From positions 1,798,001 to 1,862,000 of the forward strand of contig NZ_VIVK01000001.1 in NCBI RefSeq assembly GCF_007828865.1: a DNA stretch of 64,000 bases, written 5' to 3'. Position numbers and translations under genes: made by a program. Within the stretch, counting starts at the first letter, position 1, and every line of letters begins with the position of its first letter. Below are positions 35,964-52,009 of the stretch, piece by piece. This DNA is from Kribbella amoyensis (GTDB taxonomy: Bacteria; Actinomycetota; Actinomycetes; Propionibacteriales; Kribbellaceae). The notes beneath the pieces were generated by a model. It worked only from the letters and a program-made list of their open reading frames with translations, ran no database searches and was not told where the DNA came from.

Positions 35964-36560
35964 ATGATCATCGTGACAGCTGCACTGAAGGGCGGGGTCG
36001 GCAAGACAACCACGTCGGTGTACCTCGCCGCGCTGGCATCTTCCAACCGCCGCACAGCCACCCTCATCGACGCTGATCCGCAGGGCAGCGCGGCGGACTG
36101 GATCGAGGCGTCCGACGACGACAACCTGGACCGGATCGAGATCGCCGAGGCACCGACCGAGCGGCTGCTCACCAAAGCCCTGGACAAGGTCCCACCCGAG
36201 GGCATCGGCGTCGTCGACATGCCGCCGTCGCACGAAAGGCTGCTGAACAAGGCCCTGGAACGCGCCCGCATCGTGCTGATCCCGACCAGGGTCGGCGGCG
36301 TCGAAACCCCGCGAGTCAAAGCAGTCCTCGACCTGGTCCCGGACGAAACCCCAGTCGGCCTGGTCATCTGCTCGGCCCGCACCTACACCAGGGCGTACCA
36401 GGAAACCATGCAGCAGTACGCCTCCGAGAACATCCCGGTCTGGGGCACCATCCCCGAAAGAGTAAGCATCACCGCCGGCCCAGCAGGCCCCCTCGCCCCA
36501 GACGGCCTGGACTCCTACAAAAAAGTCTGGCGAAAAGTCCTGGCCGCAGCCCGAAGCTGA
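35964..36560 (+). CDS. ParA-family ATPase
   Basis: 198 residues from ATG 35964. Deviant Walker A LKGGVGKTTTSVYLA near the start, TLIDADPQGSAADW and VVDMPPSHERLL (Walker A-prime and B). No ParB gene or parS-like array is apparent next to it, so this is probably an orphan ParA-type partitioning/positioning ATPase. The 379 bp after it hold REP-like palindromes rather than genes. Confidence 0.88.
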   Translation: MIIVTAALKGGVGKTTTSVYLAALASSNRRTATLIDADPQGSAADWIEASDDDNLDRIEIAEAPTERLLTKALDKVPPEGIGVVDMPPSHERLLNKALERARIVLIPTRVGGVETPRVKAVLDLVPDETPVGLVICSARTYTRAYQETMQQYASENIPVWGTIPERVSITAGPAGPLAPDGLDSYKKVWRKVLAAARS

Positions 36561-36764: not shown

Positions 36765-36937
36765 CCACAAGCGAGAAGCAGTCGTACGCCCAGCTGACCC
36801 CCAGGTTGTTTGATGAATGACGTGTTACAGCCCGCCACCCATCACACAACCCGCCACCCAGGCCTGTGGTGTCTCGCATCCGCCCGCCACGTTCGGGCGC
36901 GCTAAACCTCAACGCTTGCCTAAACAACTGCTGCGAG
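36765..36937 (+). other. Non-coding gap and left half of the REP unit split by IS110
   Basis: No gene is apparent. ACTGCTGCGAG at the right end is the left arm of a REP-like unit that continues with TGCTCGCGTCCCC after the IS110 element (38467 onward). An upstream CCTCAACG block is shared with the repeats near 49.4 kb. Confidence 0.6.
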
Positions 36938-36959
36938 CTCACTGGTGGACCCTGGTGGT

Positions 36960-37170
36960 GTTGGTGGCCGTGGATGGTTACCGATGCACCCCTGGGGGCC
37001 GTCGGATCATCGCCGTGCGAGCTGGATGCTGGGGGATGTCCGGAGCAAGTTGTGCGGGGTTCGGCGGTTTCTGGGTCATGCCGACCGTCGACAGGGCTTT
37101 GCGCCGTGGAGCGCCGACAGTGAGCGATGCGGCAGTCGTGGCCTGGACCCCGCACCCAAAAGGGGTGCCT
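36960..37170 (+). ncRNA. IS110 bridge RNA region (target- and donor-binding loops)
   Basis: TGCGAGCT (37016-37023) is identical to the left target plus core (36932-36939), and GAGCAAG (37043-37049) is the exact reverse complement of core plus right target CTTGCTC (38465-38471). Placed 20 nt apart, they look like the two guides of the target-binding loop. Further along, CAGTGAG (37118-37124) is the reverse complement of CTCACTG at the left end (36938-36944), as expected for the right-donor guide. I could not find a convincing left-donor guide. The region ends near hairpin GCACCC (37152-37157) / GGGTGC (37163-37168). RNA ends are estimates. Confidence 0.78.
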
Positions 37171-37201
37171 CCCCACTGGGACTAGCAGCGAGGAGGCTGA
37201 C

Positions 37202-38455
37202 GTGGAGTCTGCCAGAAACACCCTGTCCGAGGAACCACTCAACGGTGTGACCGCCGGTCTGGACTGGGCGCGTGATGATCATGCGGTCGCGGTGGTCGAT
37301 GGCCGCGGTGTCGAGTGTGAGCGCTGGACGGTTCCCAACACCGGCCCGCAGCTGCGGCGGCTGGTCGAGCGGCTGCAGAAACTGGGCGTGGCCGAGGTAG
37401 CGATCGAACGCGGTGACGGCCCGGTCGTGGCGGCACTGCTCGAGGCCGGACTCACCGTGGTGGTGATCAGCCCGAACCAGTTGAGGAACCTGCGCGGCCG
37501 GTACGGATCGGCCGGGAACAAAGACGACCGGTTCGACGCGTTCGTGCTGGCCGACACCCTGCGCACCGACCGGGCCCGGCTGCGGCCACTCACCCCTGAC
37601 AGCCCCGCCACGATCACCCTGCGCCAGACCTGCCGGGCCCGCAAAGACCTGGTCGAACACCGCGTGGCCGTGGCCAACCAGCTACGCGCCCACCTGTTGA
37701 TCAACTTCCCCGGCGCGGTCGGACTGTTCAACCGGATCGACGCCCCGATCAGCCTGCGGTTCCTGACCCGGTTCGACTGCCAAGACCGCGCCGACTGGCT
37801 CACCCCGACCCGGCTGGCCGCCTGGCTCCGCTCGACCGGCTACTGCGGCCGCACCAGCCCCGCCGTCCTGCACACCCGGCTAACCACCGCACCCCGCGGC
37901 ACCACCGGCCCCGCCAGCACCGCCAACCGCCACATCACCCACGCCCTGGTCGCCGTCCTGACCTGTCTCAACACCCAGATCACCACCCTGAACGACCAGA
38001 TCGCCACCCAACTCGCCCACCACACCGACGCGCACATCTTCACCAGCCTGCCCCGCTCCGGCACCATCCGCGCCGCCCGCCTACTCAGCGAACTCGGCGA
38101 CTGCCGCGCCCGCTACCCCACCCCACAAGCCCTGACCTGCCTGGCCGGCGTCGCTCCCACCACCCGCCAATCAGGCACCCAACGCACCGTCCACTACCGC
38201 TTCGCCGCCGACAAACAACTCCGCGACGCCATCTGCGACTTCGCCGCCGACTCCCGCAAAACCAACCCCTGGGCCGCCAACCTCTACCACCAAGCCCGCA
38301 ACCGCGGACACACCCACCCCCACGCCGTCCGCATCCTCGCCCGCGCCTGGCTCCACATCATCTGGCACTGCTGGCAACAACACACCCCCTACCAACCCAC
38401 CCACCACCACGCACTCCAACGCCTACTCACACCCCAAACCAACCACCCACGTTGA
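37202..38455 (+). CDS. IS110-family transposase (DEDD RuvC-like + Tnp_20)
   Basis: 417 residues from GTG 37202, with GAGGAGG 6 nt upstream. The N-terminal RuvC-like domain starts GLDWARDDHAVAVVDG (first Asp) with VAIERGDGPVVAALLEAG and ...NKDDRFDAFVLAD (Asp pair); the C-terminal transposase_20 domain contains FTSLPRSGTIRAARLLSELGDCRA and ALTCLAGVAPTTRQSG with its serine. No frameshift. Codon use becomes strongly C-biased in the last 500 nt, unlike its neighbours. It should be an RNA-guided recombinase using the bridge RNA in its left end. Confidence 0.95.
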   Translation: MESARNTLSEEPLNGVTAGLDWARDDHAVAVVDGRGVECERWTVPNTGPQLRRLVERLQKLGVAEVAIERGDGPVVAALLEAGLTVVVISPNQLRNLRGRYGSAGNKDDRFDAFVLADTLRTDRARLRPLTPDSPATITLRQTCRARKDLVEHRVAVANQLRAHLLINFPGAVGLFNRIDAPISLRFLTRFDCQDRADWLTPTRLAAWLRSTGYCGRTSPAVLHTRLTTAPRGTTGPASTANRHITHALVAVLTCLNTQITTLNDQIATQLAHHTDAHIFTSLPRSGTIRAARLLSELGDCRARYPTPQALTCLAGVAPTTRQSGTQRTVHYRFAADKQLRDAICDFAADSRKTNPWAANLYHQARNRGHTHPHAVRILARAWLHIIWHCWQQHTPYQPTHHHALQRLLTPQTNHPR

Positions 38456-38466
38456 CACAGGACACT

Positions 38467-38492
38467 TGCTCGCGTCCCCGGCTACAGGTCGC
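38467..38492 (+). repeat. Right half of the REP unit split by IS110
   Basis: TGCTCGCGTCCCCGGCTACAGG continues the palindrome whose left half ends at 36937. Beyond it there is nothing obvious up to the ROK gene end at 38538. Confidence 0.7.
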
Positions 38493-38537: not shown

Positions 38538-39740
38538 TTATCTCTGAAATGGTTGTTCGCCGCGGACGTACGAGCGGATGACTGTTGCTGCTGCGCCGCG
38601 GGCCCAATCGTTGAAGGTGTGGGAGCGGAGCATGAGGCGGCAGTCTCCGGCCGCCCCGAAGGCGTGGGCTGCGAAGGCTTCTCGCATTCTTTGTTCGTAC
38701 AGGTCGTAGTCGGCCACGCCTTCGCCGGCGATGACCACCAGCTCCGGGCCGACCAGATTCACCATCGCGGCGAGGGCGGACCCGATCACCTCGCCGGCTC
38801 GGTCGAAGGCTTCGCGGGCGTTCTCGTCGCCGCCGTGCGCCAGCTCGATCGCGCCGGACAGATCCAGGTCGGGCCGGCCGGTGGTTTCCCGGGTGCGGTT
38901 GAGGATCGCGTCCGAGGACGCCACCGTTTCGACGCATCCACGTCGGCCGCACGTACACACCAACTCACCAGGCGCCAGCGGCAGATGGCCGAGTTCGCCC
39001 GAGACGCCGTGCGCCCCGGACACCACCTCGCCGTTGATGTACAGCCCGCAGCCCACGCCCGACCCGATCGTCACCACCGCGAACGAGTCCGCGTTCACCC
39101 CGACGCCGAACCAGTGCTCCGACACCGTCAGCGCGCGCACGTCGTTCGTCACCACGACCGGTACGCCGAGCTTCTCGGTCAGCAGCTCGCCCACTCCGAC
39201 GTCCCGCCAGCCCATGAACGGCGAGTCCCGGACGACGCCGTGCTCCGCGTCCACATCCCCCGAGACCGCGACGCCGATGCCGATCAGCGGACCTGAATCG
39301 TCGCCCAGTGTGCCGATCAGTTCGCTCGCGAGATCGGTCAGTCGCTGCAGCACTGTCTCGACCGAGTGATCCGGGAGTGGTTGCTGGCGTGCCGTGATGA
39401 TGCCGGCGCTGAAGTCCGTGGTCACGCCGATCAGCGCGGTCGGTGTCACCTTCAGCCCGATCACCGAGACGCTGTTCCGGATCACGGTCAGCGGGCTCAC
39501 CGGCCGGCCGATCCCCAGCTGCGCCTCCACCACTTCACCGGACCGCGCCGTGACCGGCTGATCGGTGACGAACCCGGCCTCGATCAGCGGTGCGACCGCC
39601 TTCGTCACCGCGGCCTGCGACAATCCGGCCCGGCGGGCGATCTCGACGCGCGGGATCGGGCCCTGGGTGAGGATCCTGGTCAGCACCTCGACCCCGGCCG
39701 GCGTCGCCAGCGGCAGTGCGGGATTCGGGCGCGGTGACAT
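38538..39740 (-). CDS. ROK-family transcriptional regulator
   Basis: 400 residues from ATG 39740. N-terminal winged helix (IPRVEIARRAGLSQAAVTKAVAPLIEAG) then a ROK domain with SGELGHLPL, the zinc-site CTCGRRGCVE and VVVTNDVRAL. The DxGxT ATP-phosphate motif of ROK sugar kinases is not present (SVIGLKVTPTALIGV), so it is more likely a sugar-responsive repressor/activator than a kinase. Confidence 0.9.
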   Translation of the reverse strand: MSPRPNPALPLATPAGVEVLTRILTQGPIPRVEIARRAGLSQAAVTKAVAPLIEAGFVTDQPVTARSGEVVEAQLGIGRPVSPLTVIRNSVSVIGLKVTPTALIGVTTDFSAGIITARQQPLPDHSVETVLQRLTDLASELIGTLGDDSGPLIGIGVAVSGDVDAEHGVVRDSPFMGWRDVGVGELLTEKLGVPVVVTNDVRALTVSEHWFGVGVNADSFAVVTIGSGVGCGLYINGEVVSGAHGVSGELGHLPLAPGELVCTCGRRGCVETVASSDAILNRTRETTGRPDLDLSGAIELAHGGDENAREAFDRAGEVIGSALAAMVNLVGPELVVIAGEGVADYDLYEQRMREAFAAHAFGAAGDCRLMLRSHTFNDWARGAAATVIRSYVRGEQPFQR

Positions 39741-46532: not shown

Positions 46533-46840
46533 GACAAACCGCAACTTAACTGAAAACCGAACGATTCCACGAACCCCGGTTCGCCGGCTGGACGCAAGCC
46601 AGGCCCAAGGGGTGAGCGCGGACGCACACCACTCACCAACTCCTGTTCCCCTGCAAGGTCGGACCGTAGGAGCACCCCCGACCTGACGTCGGAGCCGACA
46701 TTGGTGAGTGGTGGCGGTCCCCCGCTCGGCTCGGCCGGGCGCCTCAGCTGCGGGCTCGCGTCGCCGTCACCTGGGCCGGAGTCGGCCCGCGGCCTAGACC
46801 ATTTGGGTAAACCTTGGGGTTCAGGGGCCCGGCGGGTCGG
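46533..46840. other. Intergenic gap with a long branched inverted repeat
   Basis: No gene seen. CACCACTCACCAA (46627-46639) pairs perfectly with TTGGTGAGTGGTG (46701-46713); inside is AGGTCGG (46656-46662) with CCGACCT (46678-46684) and a small TCGG/CCGA hairpin, giving an about 87-nt cruciform or RNA-like fold between the MFS gene and NACHT gene 1. Confidence 0.6.
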
Positions 46841-46846
46841 TACGCT
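46841..46846 (+). promoter_or_regulatory. Leaderless-type -10 element before NACHT gene 1
   Basis: TACGCT ends 6 nt before GTG 46853, so transcription would start at or next to the start codon. NACHT gene 2 has the same arrangement (TACGCT 49717-49722, GTG 49730). Confidence 0.5.
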
Positions 46847-46852
46847 CCGTGG

Positions 46853-49162
46853 GTGAGGATGCGCGGGCTGTTGAGGTTTGCCGTCATTGTCTTCACTGTT
46901 TCGCTCACGCTCGTGCTGCTGCCGATCGCCATCAACGTCGGCACCGGTGGTACCGCCCCGGACTTCCTCGCCAGGTACGTCGACTGGACCTGGCCCGTCA
47001 TCGGCCTGCTCTGGTGCGCCGCGATCGTCACCGGTGTCATCGAGTACCGGAGTCGGTTCGCGACCACTTCCGCGCGATCCGCCGATCAGCCGCGCAATCG
47101 TCCCAACGCGCTCGGCCGGGTCGATCGGTATCTCGTCGAGCGGTCGGCGGGCTCGCTTCGGTCCAAGCTGCGGCTCGCGTTGTCGGTCGAGGAACGGCCG
47201 GAGGCGGTTCGGCCGTACGACCTGCTCGTGCAGCCTCTGGAGAGTGGGTCCGGGACCGTGCGCCGGGGGACGGACGTGGCGCGGATCTTCGACGAGTTGC
47301 AGGATTCGATGCTCGTCCTGGGTGCTCCTGGGGCCGGGAAGACGACGCTGTTGATGGACCTCGCCCGGTCCCTCCTCGACCAGGCGAACGCTGATCCGTC
47401 CCGCCCCGTGCCCGTGCTCATCGATCTCGCCGGGTGGACCGGGCCCGGTACCGCGCCTGGCCGGCCGACGGACGACGATCCCGCGGACACTGCTCCGCTC
47501 GCGGCTTTCGTTCGCTGGTTGCTCGACGAGTGCAGCTCGCGGTACGGGATTCCCGCGCCGGTCGGCCGGGTGTGGCTGCGGGACGGGCGGCTCGCGTTGT
47601 TGCTGGACGGGTTGGACGAGGTCGCCGCCGGTCAGCGGGAGCGGCTGACCGCGATCCTGGAGCAGCTCCGGCAGAACTATTTGGTCAGCCAGCTCGCGAT
47701 CACGTCGCGCACGAAGGAGTACGAAGATCTCGCGCGGCCGCTCGGGTTGTACGGCGCGGTGCAGATCCGGCCGTTGAGCCGCGCGCAGGTGCTCGAGTAC
47801 TTCACCGCCGGCGGCGACGACCTGGCCGGTGCGCGCGCCGCCGTCGAGCGGGACGCCGAGCTGTGGGACATGGTCGACTCACCGCTGATGCTCAACGTGG
47901 TCGCCCTCGCGTACCAAGGGCGCGCCGCCGGCGAGGTGGCTTCGGGGGCGGTCGCTGACCATCGGCGCGAACTGTTCGACACGTACGTGATCGAGGTGCT
48001 GGTCCGGCATCGGTCCGGCAGCGGCCAGTACCCGTCCAGGACCGTGCTGCGGTCCCTGTGGTGCCTGGCTCGCTGGACCCGGATGGGCGAAGGCGATCGC
48101 ATCATGCTGCCGCGCCGCCTGCCGCCGGGTGGTTGGTACGGGATGGTGCTGCCCGAAGTCAGCCGGCTCGCCCACCTGATCTGCCTGCCGGCGTTGTTCG
48201 CGGGATTCGTGGCCGGGTTCGCGATGACGGCGACACTGCTGTTCGGCGTACCGGCCGGGGTCGCGGCGGGCGCGGTCGCGCTCGTGCTGATCCAGCAACG
48301 CGGAACGTGGCGCGTCTTCCGGGAGGGTCCACCGGGTCCGGTCGGGACGATCGCGGCCCTCATCGTTGGTGGTGCTCTACTGACCGGACTCGCGCTGACC
48401 GCGATCGGTGCGGGAGTGGTCGCGATCCTGCCGACTTGGCTGGCGACTCTGCTCGTGGTGGGTGGGGTCGTGGCGGCGTCGTTGCGGGAAGTCTTCCTGG
48501 TCGGCGGGGACGACCGGCCGACGAAGTACCTGGTCCGGCTGCGACTGGTGATGTTGTGCGTACTGACCGGACTGGCGTTGGCCCGGGTGAGTACGCCCGA
48601 GGTGTTGCTGGAGGCGTTCCTCGTCGGCCTGGTGGGCGCGGAAGGGGTACGCCTGATCGCGAGACTGCCGATGGACCAGTTGGTCGCGCGTGATCCGAGC
48701 ACCGAGTGGGTGGACGGACCGCGGTTCCGCTGGGCGATCGCGCGCTGGGTGATTCCGGTGGGCGTGGGGGCGGTCGTGGTCGCCGCGATCCTGAGCGGCA
48801 AGCTGCGAACCGGACCGGAACCACTCCTCGGGCTCTTGCTCGGCGCAACAGCCTCCCAAGGCTGGCAGGTCGTCGGCTACCGCCTGACCGAAACAGTCTC
48901 CCGAATCCTCCACGGAGCACCCCTCCGCTGGACGGGCTACCTCCCCTGGCGCCGCCGAGCCTTCCTCCGCTTCGCCGCCGACCGCCACCTCCTCGCCCCC
49001 ACAGGCCAACTCGACCGCCTCGCCGGCGAGCAGTACGCCTTCATCCACCTCCTCGTCCGCGACCACCTGGCCGACTGCGACCCCGACGAACTGGCGGCGC
49101 GGGTGAACACCCGCCTGGAAGAACGCGAGGCAACCCGAACTGCGGCGGTACTGGCGGACTGA
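46853..49162 (+). CDS. NACHT-domain transmembrane NTPase 1
   Basis: 769 residues from GTG 46853. Two N-terminal helices (FAVIVFTVSLTLVLLPIAIN; PVIGLLWCAAIVTGVI), a NACHT NTPase domain with GAPGAGKTTLL (about 157-167), LALLLDGLDEV (about 248-258) and ITSRTKEY, a REFFT-like winged region, then five or more C-terminal helices and the conserved end GYLPWRRRAFLRFAADR with QYAFIHLLVRDHLADC. This architecture is widespread in actinobacteria as NACHT-TM STAND ATPases; relatives include anti-phage NLR-like proteins, but the function here is unproven. Tandem paralogue of the 49730 gene. Confidence 0.88.
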   Translation: MRMRGLLRFAVIVFTVSLTLVLLPIAINVGTGGTAPDFLARYVDWTWPVIGLLWCAAIVTGVIEYRSRFATTSARSADQPRNRPNALGRVDRYLVERSAGSLRSKLRLALSVEERPEAVRPYDLLVQPLESGSGTVRRGTDVARIFDELQDSMLVLGAPGAGKTTLLMDLARSLLDQANADPSRPVPVLIDLAGWTGPGTAPGRPTDDDPADTAPLAAFVRWLLDECSSRYGIPAPVGRVWLRDGRLALLLDGLDEVAAGQRERLTAILEQLRQNYLVSQLAITSRTKEYEDLARPLGLYGAVQIRPLSRAQVLEYFTAGGDDLAGARAAVERDAELWDMVDSPLMLNVVALAYQGRAAGEVASGAVADHRRELFDTYVIEVLVRHRSGSGQYPSRTVLRSLWCLARWTRMGEGDRIMLPRRLPPGGWYGMVLPEVSRLAHLICLPALFAGFVAGFAMTATLLFGVPAGVAAGAVALVLIQQRGTWRVFREGPPGPVGTIAALIVGGALLTGLALTAIGAGVVAILPTWLATLLVVGGVVAASLREVFLVGGDDRPTKYLVRLRLVMLCVLTGLALARVSTPEVLLEAFLVGLVGAEGVRLIARLPMDQLVARDPSTEWVDGPRFRWAIARWVIPVGVGAVVVAAILSGKLRTGPEPLLGLLLGATASQGWQVVGYRLTETVSRILHGAPLRWTGYLPWRRRAFLRFAADRHLLAPTGQLDRLAGEQYAFIHLLVRDHLADCDPDELAARVNTRLEEREATRTAAVLAD

Positions 49163-49190: not shown

Positions 49191-49357
49191 CAACAACTAC
49201 GTGCTTACTCACATCCCCGGCCACGTGCAGGCGGTGACTTGTACAGCTGCCTGGACCCGTCAGTTGTTTGTCGGTCGGTCGTTGCGTGGTTGGGTGCGCG
49301 AGCGAGCTCGCGGTTGTTGTTGAGGTAGGCGAGCGGCGGCACTGGGGTACTGGCGGC
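49191..49357 (+). repeat. 207-bp tandem repeat, copy 1
   Basis: Block from CAACAACTACG to ...GGCACTGGGG carrying a minus-orientation REP palindrome (GCGAGCGAGCTCGC, 49298-49311). It aligns without gaps to copy 2 at an offset of 207 bp (for example TCCCCGGCCACGTG at 49214 and 49421; TTGTTTGTCGG at 49264 and 49471). Non-coding. Confidence 0.75.
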
Positions 49358-49392
49358 GGCGGCCGGCGTGGTTTGTTCGGCTGATTGTCTAC

Positions 49393-49562
49393 CTCAACGT
49401 CTGCTGCGAGCTTGCTCGCGTCCCCGGCCACGTGCTGGCGGTTGGTTGTACGGCTGCCTCGGTCCGCCAGTTGTTTGTCGGTCGGTCGTTGCCTGGTTGG
49501 GTACGCGAGCAAGCTCGCGGTTGTGGTTGAGGTAGGCGAGCGGCGGCACTGGGGTGCTGGCG
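49393..49562 (+). repeat. 207-bp tandem repeat, copy 2
   Basis: Carries REP palindromes in both orientations: GCGAGCTTGCTCGC (49406-49419) and its inverse GCGAGCAAGCTCGC (49505-49518). The segment 49404-49424 is identical to the IS110 target. Shares CCTCAACG with the IS110 locus. Confidence 0.75.
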
Positions 49563-49613
49563 GCTGCTGTTGACAGCGACGGCGGCGGGTGCGGCTGCTC
49601 GGCTGACCGCCTG

Positions 49614-49676
49614 CTTCAACTACTGCTACGAGCTTGCTCGCGTCTCCAGCTATCTACCGCCTGACCGTTGTACTCA
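49614..49676 (+). repeat. Tandem repeat, partial copy 3
   Basis: CTTCAACTACTGCTACGAGC then TTGCTCGCGTCTCC matches the start of copy 2 (offset 222) and ends 54 bp before NACHT gene 2. Its REP arm is imperfect (ACGAGCTTGCTCG). Confidence 0.6.
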
Positions 49677-49729
49677 TCCCTCGCCTTCGGTGGGTTATGG
49701 GGAGCCTGGGGATCGGTACGCTCGGCGGG

Positions 49730-52009
49730 GTGAGGATGCGTGGGGTTTTGCGGGTTGGCTTTCTTGTCTTCACGGTTTCGCTCACGCTCGTACTGCTCCC
49801 GATCGCCATCAACGTCGGCACCGGTGGGACCGCCCCCGACTTCCTCGCCGAATACGTCCGCTGGACGTGGCCCGCGGTCGGCATTCTCTGGCTCGCCGCG
49901 ATCCTCACCGGCGTGATCGAGTACCGCAGTCGGCGGATCGTCACCCGCACCGCCCGGTCCGCCGACCAGCCGCGTAACCGCCCCAACGCGCTGGCCCACA
50001 TCGAGCGGTACTACCGTCAGCGGTTCGCCGGATCGCTCGCTTCCCGTACCCGGTTGGCCCTCGCGTTGGACGAGAGTTCGGCTGCCGTCGTCCGCCCGTA
50101 CGACCTGCTCGTGAGACCCCTGCACAGCACCGTCGCGGAGGTTCACGAAGACGCCGACATCGCCGCCGCGTTCGATGAGTTGCAGGACTCGATGGTCATC
50201 CTCGGCGCCCCTGGTTCGGGCAAGAGCACGCTGCTTCTCGACCTCGCTCGCTCTCTCGCCGACGAGGCCGACCGGGACCACGAGCAACCTCTGCCCGTGC
50301 TCGTCGATCTCGCCGGGTGGACCGGTGCGACGCCTGCCCGGCCCGAGGACGACGACGATCCTGCCGACAGTCCTCTGCTCGCGAACTTCGTTGCCTGGTT
50401 GCTCGACGAGCTGGATGCGCGGTACCAGATCCCGGCCCCGGTCGGCCGGGTCTGGCTCAGCCGGGGACGTTTGGCGCTCCTGCTCGACGGGGTCGACGAG
50501 ATCACGCCCTCCTACCGCGACAAGCTCGCCCAAGTACTCGACGAACTCCGGCGGCGCTATCTGATCGGGCAGCTCGCGATCACCTGCCGGATTCAGGACT
50601 ACGAGCAACTCCCCGAGCCGCTCAGCTTGTACGGCGCGGTGCGGATCCGCCCGTTGAGCCGTCGACAGGTGCTCGACTACTTCACCGCGGCCGGCGACGA
50701 CCTGGCCGGTGCGCGGGCCGCCGTCGAACAGGACGACGATCTGTGGGACCTGGTCGACTCACCGCTGATGCTCAACGTCATGGCCCTCGCGTACCAGGGC
50801 CGCGACGCTCGCGAGATCGCTGCCGGTGCGGTGGCCGACCATCGGCGGGAGCTGTTCGACACGTACGTCGCGGAGGTGCTCTCCCGGCAACGCGCGGTCG
50901 GCACCCAGTACGACGCGCGGACCGCTGTTCGTTCGTTGTGGTGCCTCGCGTGGTGGACCCGGAGTCGCGCCGGCGATCGGATCGCGGTACCGCGCTGGCT
51001 CACCCCGAACGGCTGGTACGGCCTGGTCCTTCCCGCTGTCGGTTCGCTCGCCCACAAGGTGTGTCTCCCCGCGCTCTTCGCCGGGCTGGTCGGTGGTTCG
51101 GCGCTCGCCGCCTCCGCCTTGTACGGCGTGCCGGCAGGGCTGGCCGTGGGGGTGATGAGTCTGCTGCTGGTCCACATTCGGCCACGGCCGTGGCGCACGT
51201 TCCGGGAGAGATCCGAGCGACCACCGTTTCTGCTGGCGGCGGTGATGGTGATGGCCGGCGTGGTCGCAGGCTGCGCTGCGGTCCTCGGCACGATCTGGTT
51301 GCTCACCGTCCTGCCGACCTGGCTCGGTCTGGTCGTCGAAGCAGCGGCGATCGGAGCGTCGTACGGGGTCGAGCTGATCGTGTCGCACGGCGATCGGCGC
51401 AGGTGGTGGTTGCTGTTGCGGCTGGCCGTGGTCACCGCCGGGAGCTGGGTCGTGCTCGCCGTCACCGATCGCCCAGGCGCGTACGTCAGCGGTGTCGCCA
51501 TCGGGTTGATCGTTGCCCAAGGCATCCGGTTGGTGAAGGCGTTGCCGATGGACCACCTGGTGTACTCCCGCGATCGCGAGGACGGCCGGGACCTGATGGA
51601 CCTGTGGGTGGTCGCCGGACTCGGGGCGGCGATCGTGGTCGCGGTCGGACTCGGCGCGGAGCTCGGTGCGCCGGAGCCGGAGGGCGTGCTCGGGGTGATC
51701 GCCGGCGTGGTCGCCGCGAAGGCGTGGCGTCGGCGGCCGCCGTTGTTCGCCGGTCCGACGTCGCGGCTGCTGCACGGCTTGTTGCTGCGCTGGACCGGGT
51801 ACCTGCCGTGGCGTCGCCGGGCGTTTCTCCGGTACGCCGCGGATCGCTTCGTGTTGTCGCGGACCGGACGCGGGGAGTACGCGTTCATCCACCTGCTCGT
51901 CCGCGACCACCTGGCCGAATGCGACCCCGACGCTCTCGCCGCCAAGGTGGACCACCGCATCACCACCCGCCGCGACTCTAGGCCACCTCGTACAGTACGA
52001 GCACGGTGA
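49730..52009 (+). CDS. NACHT-domain transmembrane NTPase 2
   Basis: 759 residues from GTG 49730. Same architecture as the 46853 gene and highly similar: N-terminal FTVSLTLVLLPIAINVGTGG and DEIT... NACHT motifs GAPGSGKSTLL and LALLLDGVDEI, ITCRIQDYEQL, five or more C-terminal helices and EYAFIHLLVRDHLAEC. The P-loop keeps a GK[S/T] pair and the Walker B aspartates are intact, so both copies look functional. Presumed tandem duplication separated by the 207-bp repeats. Confidence 0.88.
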   Translation: MRMRGVLRVGFLVFTVSLTLVLLPIAINVGTGGTAPDFLAEYVRWTWPAVGILWLAAILTGVIEYRSRRIVTRTARSADQPRNRPNALAHIERYYRQRFAGSLASRTRLALALDESSAAVVRPYDLLVRPLHSTVAEVHEDADIAAAFDELQDSMVILGAPGSGKSTLLLDLARSLADEADRDHEQPLPVLVDLAGWTGATPARPEDDDDPADSPLLANFVAWLLDELDARYQIPAPVGRVWLSRGRLALLLDGVDEITPSYRDKLAQVLDELRRRYLIGQLAITCRIQDYEQLPEPLSLYGAVRIRPLSRRQVLDYFTAAGDDLAGARAAVEQDDDLWDLVDSPLMLNVMALAYQGRDAREIAAGAVADHRRELFDTYVAEVLSRQRAVGTQYDARTAVRSLWCLAWWTRSRAGDRIAVPRWLTPNGWYGLVLPAVGSLAHKVCLPALFAGLVGGSALAASALYGVPAGLAVGVMSLLLVHIRPRPWRTFRERSERPPFLLAAVMVMAGVVAGCAAVLGTIWLLTVLPTWLGLVVEAAAIGASYGVELIVSHGDRRRWWLLLRLAVVTAGSWVVLAVTDRPGAYVSGVAIGLIVAQGIRLVKALPMDHLVYSRDREDGRDLMDLWVVAGLGAAIVVAVGLGAELGAPEPEGVLGVIAGVVAAKAWRRRPPLFAGPTSRLLHGLLLRWTGYLPWRRRAFLRYAADRFVLSRTGRGEYAFIHLLVRDHLAECDPDALAAKVDHRITTRRDSRPPRTVRAR

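What the first reader, a model, noticed from the sequence alone, without database searches (positions are those of the whole stretch)
36932..38471. IS110 element whose bridge-RNA guides match the REP palindrome it interrupts
Removing 36938-38466 but keeping one CT restores GCTGCGAG-CT-TGCTCGCGTCCCC, identical to the intact unit at 49404-49424. In the left end, TGCGAGCT (37016-37023) equals left target plus core, GAGCAAG (37043-37049) is the reverse complement of core plus right target, and CAGTGAG (37118-37124) is the reverse complement of the element's own left end. This is the guide layout of IS621-type bridge RNAs, which program RNA-guided recombination. The sequence therefore shows an actinobacterial IS110 programmed for the centre of a chromosomal palindromic repeat, with both target guides matching perfectly over 7-8 nt.
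Basis: partly seen in the sequence, partly recalled or inferred. Interest (0 to 1): 0.82.

Follow-up and report, generated by a model that had tools for sequence, protein, structure and literature searches.

The report
RNA-guided insertion element in palindromic repeat
This is a 1.5-kb jumping DNA element of the IS110 family whose own guide RNA spells out the short palindromic repeat it sits in; that is the expected behaviour of this recently explained family, but this case neatly shows one actinobacterial element naturally re-aimed to a new target, while a close relative in the same genome aims elsewhere.

Summary
Window 36938-38466 is an IS110-family element (DEDD_Tnp_IS110 + Transposase_20) sitting at the CT in the centre of a palindromic repeat, GCTGCGAG-CT-TGCTCGCG. 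A second, 99.9% identical copy elsewhere in the genome sits in another copy of the same repeat. The guide reading holds. Across 53 relatives with both flanks, the slot homologous to GAGCAAG (RTG, CT core plus 5 nt) matches each element's own right flank at 91-100% per position, against about 40-50% after permutation for three of the five positions, with a sharp edge after 7 nt. The TGCGAGCT slot (LTG) also covaries, more weakly. A covarying consensus fold puts LTG and RTG on opposite strands of one internal loop and the donor guides in a second, as in bridge RNAs. A 76%-identical relative in the same genome (four copies) carries GTCATGAG in the RTG slot and sits at CT|CATGAC. On the transposase tree the window element lies among relatives aimed at TGA stop/start junctions, so its repeat-centre target looks derived: natural reprogramming. 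IS110 elements in REP sequences and natural guide changes are both known, so this is a new member of a known kind. Not shown: transcription, transposition, or a RAYT-type REP.

The parts
36938..38466 (+). IS110-family insertion sequence, bounded by CT core dinucleotides (one CT belongs to the target)
   Evidence: Comparison with L002 (99.9% identical) and with repeat copies lacking the element
36930..36937 (+). Left half of the interrupted palindromic repeat, GCTGCGAG
   Evidence: Identical to 49403-49410
38467..38479 (+). Right half of the interrupted palindromic repeat, TGCTCGCGTCCCC
   Evidence: Identical to 49413-49425
36960..37146 (+). Predicted bridge RNA core: 5' stem-loop (36960-36985), target-binding stem-loop (36999-37067), donor-binding stem-loop (37071-37146)
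   Evidence: Consensus fold of 30 relatives and pair counts
37016..37023 (+). Left target guide + core, TGCGAGCT; 8/8 match to left target at this site
   Evidence: Sequence; covariation of this slot with the left flank in relatives
37043..37049 (+). Right target guide, GAGCAAG, reverse complement of CT-TGCTC; 7/7 match
   Evidence: Sequence; covariation of this slot with the right flank in relatives
37092..37099 (+). Probable left donor guide, CAGGGCTT, resembling the element's right end (CAGGACACT here, CAGGGCNNCT in relatives)
   Evidence: Position in second internal loop; resemblance to right ends. Register to the core not established
37118..37124 (+). Right donor guide, CAGTGAG, reverse complement of the element's left end CTCACTG
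   Evidence: Sequence; two relatives with left end CTCATTG (L049, L056) carry CAATGAG here
37202..38455 (+). Transposase/recombinase, 417 aa, GTG start; D21, E69, D109, D112 and S324-G325 at the positions of the IS621 active site
   Evidence: Pfam, alignment of relatives, profile match to IS621 structure 8wt6; D21 assigned by motif only
38452..38466 (+). Right end TTGACACAGGACACT; TTGACA is a candidate -35 box completed by the left end in the excised circle
   Evidence: TTGACA in 70 of 72 right ends of the family
49298..49642 (.). Cluster of intact palindromic repeats (49298, 49406, 49505 reversed, 49629), the uninterrupted form of the target
   Evidence: Pattern scan

Best explanation
An IS110-group insertion sequence whose left end encodes a bridge RNA. 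Its target-binding loop (LTG TGCGAG-CT, RTG reading CT-TGCTC) is programmed for the centre of a chromosomal palindromic repeat, and its donor-binding loop for its own joined ends. [quoted passage not shown] The repeat target is a derived program: close relatives, including one in the same genome, carry other guides and sit at correspondingly other targets, mostly TGA stop/start junctions. Shown here: the element and its ends, two copies at the same repeat, guide-target covariation across the family, conserved two-loop fold, conserved catalytic residues. Inferred: that the RNA is made, that it pairs with DNA as in IS621, and the direction of the retargeting.
For: IS110 domains and catalytic residues matched to IS621. 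Two copies in the same repeat type and intact repeats without insert. RTG matching in 53 relatives: 411 matches against 318.9 +/- 6.6 permuted, boundary after core+5; LTG 286 against 244.9 +/- 7.4. Nineteen distinct RTG types: 87 of 95 positions matched against 46.8 +/- 4.3. Co-resident relative B: guide slot and target changed together, in all four copies. Consensus fold with guides in internal loops. Tree: repeat-centre target nested among TGA-type targets, with several close sister pairs differing in both RTG and target. TTGACA at the right end in 70 of 72.
Against: No RNA data. Folding energy of the window's left end alone is unremarkable (z about -0.5), and its own minimum-energy fold differs from the best fold that holds the consensus pairs by about 8 kcal/mol. 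Only two copies of this exact element exist, and one has a frameshifted transposase. Left donor guide and right end match imperfectly here. Permutation tests do not fully remove shared ancestry, though the 19-class and sister-pair comparisons reduce that concern. Nesting of the window element rests partly on forks of moderate support (89/32).
Confidence: 0.92

Rival explanations
1. The transposase protein alone recognises the palindrome; the matches in the left end are incidental or footprints of past target capture.
For: The target is a palindrome, a shape that proteins often read; an earlier study proposed that the transposase recognises palindromic REP targets (PMC1525189).
Against: Guide slots change with targets in 19 distinct classes at exact homologous positions and with a sharp 7-nt edge; relatives with about 70% identical protein use unrelated targets matching their own slots; the published mechanism of the family is RNA-guided (PMC11208160).
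Confidence: 0.04
2. Both copies reached the repeat by homologous recombination between repeats or by segmental duplication, not by two targeted insertions.
For: The two copies are 99.9% identical and both lie in repeats.
Against: Flanks beyond the palindrome are unrelated (similarity stops within about 20 bp of the ends), and the guide match would still need explaining.
Confidence: 0.03
3. The element is a dead relic and the guide match is a leftover of a former activity.
For: The second copy carries a 1-nt insertion that shifts the transposase frame; the -10 part of the junction promoter is weak here.
Against: The window copy has an intact 417-aa frame with conserved catalytic residues, and near identity of the copies implies recent movement.
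Confidence: 0.1

Closest known systems
IS621 (E. coli, IS110 group; PMC11208160, PMC11208158)
   Different: Different host phylum, different palindrome, protein too distant for a single-sequence match; the RTG here is core+5 (7 nt) rather than 4 nt; repeat family without a Y1 transposase.
IS900-type elements (Mycobacterium; PMC8141618)
   Same: Relative B and most of the family insert at CATG-type sites, like the IS900 motif CATGNNNNNNTCTCCTT.
   Different: The window element targets a palindrome centre instead of a start-codon site. IS900 itself was not aligned here.
ISPpu9, ISPpu10, ISPa11, ISRm19 (REP-targeting IS110 elements of proteobacteria; PMC1525189)
   Same: IS110 family elements always found inside REP sequences.
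   Different: Proteobacterial, other palindromes; guides were not known in that study.
ISEc11 / ISXne4 pair (IS1111 family; PMC11187229)
   Same: Natural change of the guide segments with the target between elements with 72% identical transposases.
   Different: IS1111 organisation (RNA downstream, subterminal repeats); here both programs lie in one genome and the group is IS110.

Membership tests
IS110 family, IS110 group (bridge-RNA type) | DEDD RuvC-like domain plus Transposase_20 domain | tested here: met
   PF01548 3.4e-34 and PF02371 3.2e-16, both above cut-off
IS110 family, IS110 group (bridge-RNA type) | Catalytic D, E, D, D and Ser-Gly residues | tested here: met
   E69, D109, D112 and S324-G325 align with IS621 E60, D102, D105, S241-G242; D21 placed by motif only
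IS110 family, IS110 group (bridge-RNA type) | Long non-coding left end upstream of the transposase, short right end | tested here: met
   264 nt before the GTG start, 11 nt after the stop codon
IS110 family, IS110 group (bridge-RNA type) | Conserved RNA fold with 5' stem-loop and two internal loops holding the guides | tested here: met
IS110 family, IS110 group (bridge-RNA type) | Target guides match flanks and covary with them in relatives | tested here: met
IS110 family, IS110 group (bridge-RNA type) | Donor guides match the element's own ends | tested here: inconclusive
   Right donor guide 7/7 and covarying in L049/L056, but mismatched in L042/L068; left donor guide resembles the right end with an unresolved register
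IS110 family, IS110 group (bridge-RNA type) | RNA is transcribed, bound by the recombinase and directs recombination | not testable with these tools
   Needs RNA sequencing and transposition assays
REP sequence as target | Repeated intergenic palindrome, often in inverted pairs | tested here: met
   9 copies against 0 control; 17 copies in congener G008, several as inverted pairs 40-98 bp apart. Intergenic location checked only for the window copies
REP sequence as target | Associated Y1-type (RAYT) transposase | tested here: not met
   No PF01797 match in the genome, controls rang; so 'REP' only in the loose sense
IS1111 family | Subterminal inverted repeats and RNA downstream of the transposase | tested here: not met
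   Conserved fold and guides lie upstream of the transposase and the right end is 11 nt

The most novel reading that the evidence does not exclude
Guide loops in this actinobacterial subfamily are under selection for harmless landing sites. Most members aim at TGA stop/start overlaps, where the right side keeps the upstream gene's stop codon and the element's left end (..CCAGTGAG read outward) supplies a replacement GTG start for the downstream gene; the window element escaped to another harmless site, the centre of an intergenic palindrome, by rewriting both guides.
Probability: 0.35. Interest if true: 0.55.

Novelty: new member of a known kind. Interest (0 to 1): 0.42.

Why it matters
It extends guide-programmed insertion into palindromic repeats from proteobacteria to an actinobacterium. 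It also gives a clean natural experiment: two elements with 76% identical DNA in one genome, with different guide loops and correspondingly different targets. The family data define the apparent guide lengths for this subfamily (RTG core+5, LTG about core+5 or 6), which is useful if such elements are developed as recombinases for high-GC hosts.

Tried and rejected
Rfam search of the region gave only spurious sub-threshold hits. Folding the window's left end alone gave no significant stability, so the structure claim rests on the alignment. An orthologous empty site in congeners was sought but the intergenic region is not conserved; only the downstream gene matched, so paralogous intact repeats serve as empty sites. 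No further copies of the element in 37 congeners. A Y1 REP transposase was sought and not found. A single-sequence PDB search found nothing; the profile search did.

Full report
What is there. Window 36938-38466 encodes a 417-aa protein (37202-38455) with both IS110 domains. Deleting the element and keeping one CT restores CTGCTGCGAGCTTGCTCGCGTCCCCGGC, 28 nt identical to an intact repeat at 49401-49428. The element lies between convergent genes, a ParA-like ORF ending at 36560 and a ROK-like ORF on the other strand ending at 38538 (gene names from reading the translations).

The repeat. GCGAGCTTGCTCGC occurs nine times intact in the 8.1-Mb genome and the reversed control never; congener G008 has 17 copies of the 15-mer, several as inverted pairs 40-98 bp apart, while most congeners have none or one. 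In the window, four such palindromes stand between two paralogous NTPase-like genes. It therefore resembles a REP/BIME family, but no Y1-type REP transposase was found in the genome, so I use 'REP-like'. The shorter 12-mer that the guides cover is only modestly above its control, 12 against 7.

Copies. The genome has a second copy (L002), differing by one inserted C that shifts the transposase frame. It also sits at CT in the same palindrome: CCGCGAG-CT...CT-TGCTCGCG. Four copies of a 76% identical relative, B, sit at other sites, all of the form CT|CATGAC on the right. In the alignment of the two left ends, the slot that reads GGAGCAAG in A reads GTCATGAG in B, the reverse complement of CTCATGAC, between conserved neighbours.

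Family test. Eighty relatives were fetched. For 53 with usable flanks I read the homologous guide slots and compared each with its own flanks. Right guide: per-position agreement 1.00, 0.96, 0.98, 0.91, 0.92 for the five bases beyond the core, against 0.93, 0.86, 0.40, 0.40, 0.51 when targets are permuted, falling to near the permuted level at the next base. Left guide: significant at the five bases next to the core, total z 5.5. One representative per distinct right guide: 87 of 95 matches against 46.8 +/- 4.3. Close relatives on the transposase tree differ in guide and target together, for example L032/L064, L016/L019, L013/L021, L058/L060 and L012 against L009/L020. The window element, with target TGCTC, lies within a clade whose other members nearly all have right targets beginning CA, so its target is most simply derived.

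RNA fold. RNAalifold on 30 left ends gives a 5' stem-loop and two larger stem-loops each with an internal loop. The 46 pairs tested are 96.8% paired, 27 with changes on both sides, against 87.0% and 13.7 in shuffles and under 42% paired when slid. Projected on the window, LTG and RTG lie unpaired on opposite sides of the first loop and the donor guides on opposite sides of the second; I left out three nearly invariant pairs that RNAalifold drew across the donor guides, since they have no covariation support, and the outer pairs with the extreme left end. The single-sequence fold is not informative.

Mechanism. By analogy with IS621 (PMC11208160 and PMC11208158), the excised circle joins right and left ends; the conserved TTGACA at the right end (70 of 72 relatives) would supply a -35 box and the left end a -10, driving the RNA. 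The RNA then pairs with both strands of the target around CT and with the element's own junction. Catalytic residues align with IS621 by profile. Transcription, pairing and catalysis are inferred, not shown.

Relation to what is known. IS110 elements in REP sequences were catalogued in 2006 (PMC1525189), IS621 itself is one, and natural guide change was shown for ISEc11/ISXne4 (PMC11187229). What is added is an actinobacterial case with two programs in one genome, in a subfamily otherwise resembling IS900 in target (PMC8141618). I found no paper in the held library combining the terms IS110, bridge RNA and Actinobacteria, which is a weak negative.

Side result. In 51 sites with right target CA.., the TGA formed by target and core is more often the end of a long upstream frame (78% with at least 100 codons, other frames 59% and 20%), and the codon after the ATG/GTG position opens a long downstream frame more often (57% against 18% and 37%). 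The element's left end reads ..CCAGTGAG outward, which would replace the lost ATG by GTG. High GC inflates open frames, so this is suggestive only.

Noticed in passing
L003-L006 and most of L008-L087, right flanks: Most relatives insert at TGA stop/start overlaps (ATGAG, GTGAG) and their left end reads ..CCAGTGAG outward, so the upstream stop stays and a GTG start is offered to the downstream gene.
   Followed up: partly
L002 element position 829-830 (window 37766-37767): The second copy has a 1-nt insertion in a C run that frameshifts the transposase, so only the window copy is intact.
   Followed up: partly
LTG slot of 18 relatives (TGCTCG): Relatives sharing the default left guide TGCTCG pair poorly with their left targets, whereas several elements with other left guides match 7-8 of 8: left recognition may be relaxed in the start-codon seekers.
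   Followed up: partly
window 38452-38466: The window element's right end (GACACAGGACACT) differs from the family form GACAYAGGGCNNCT and its left donor guide has not followed; a G:T wobble would tolerate one change.
   Followed up: no
left ends of L010, L012, L019, L020: Several Mycobacteriaceae members appear to carry a duplicated 5' stem-loop segment in the left end.
   Followed up: no
window 46814-49162 and about 49634-52009: Two paralogous large NTPase-like (NACHT-like by eye) membrane proteins in tandem, separated by the cluster of four palindromic repeats.
   Followed up: no
L071-L081 right and left flanks: A distant subgroup carries guides GGCTGA(C/G).. and ..GGCTGAG and sits at GGCTGA..CTCAGCC sites, another quasi-palindromic target; the left guide slot is shifted relative to the core.
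   Followed up: no
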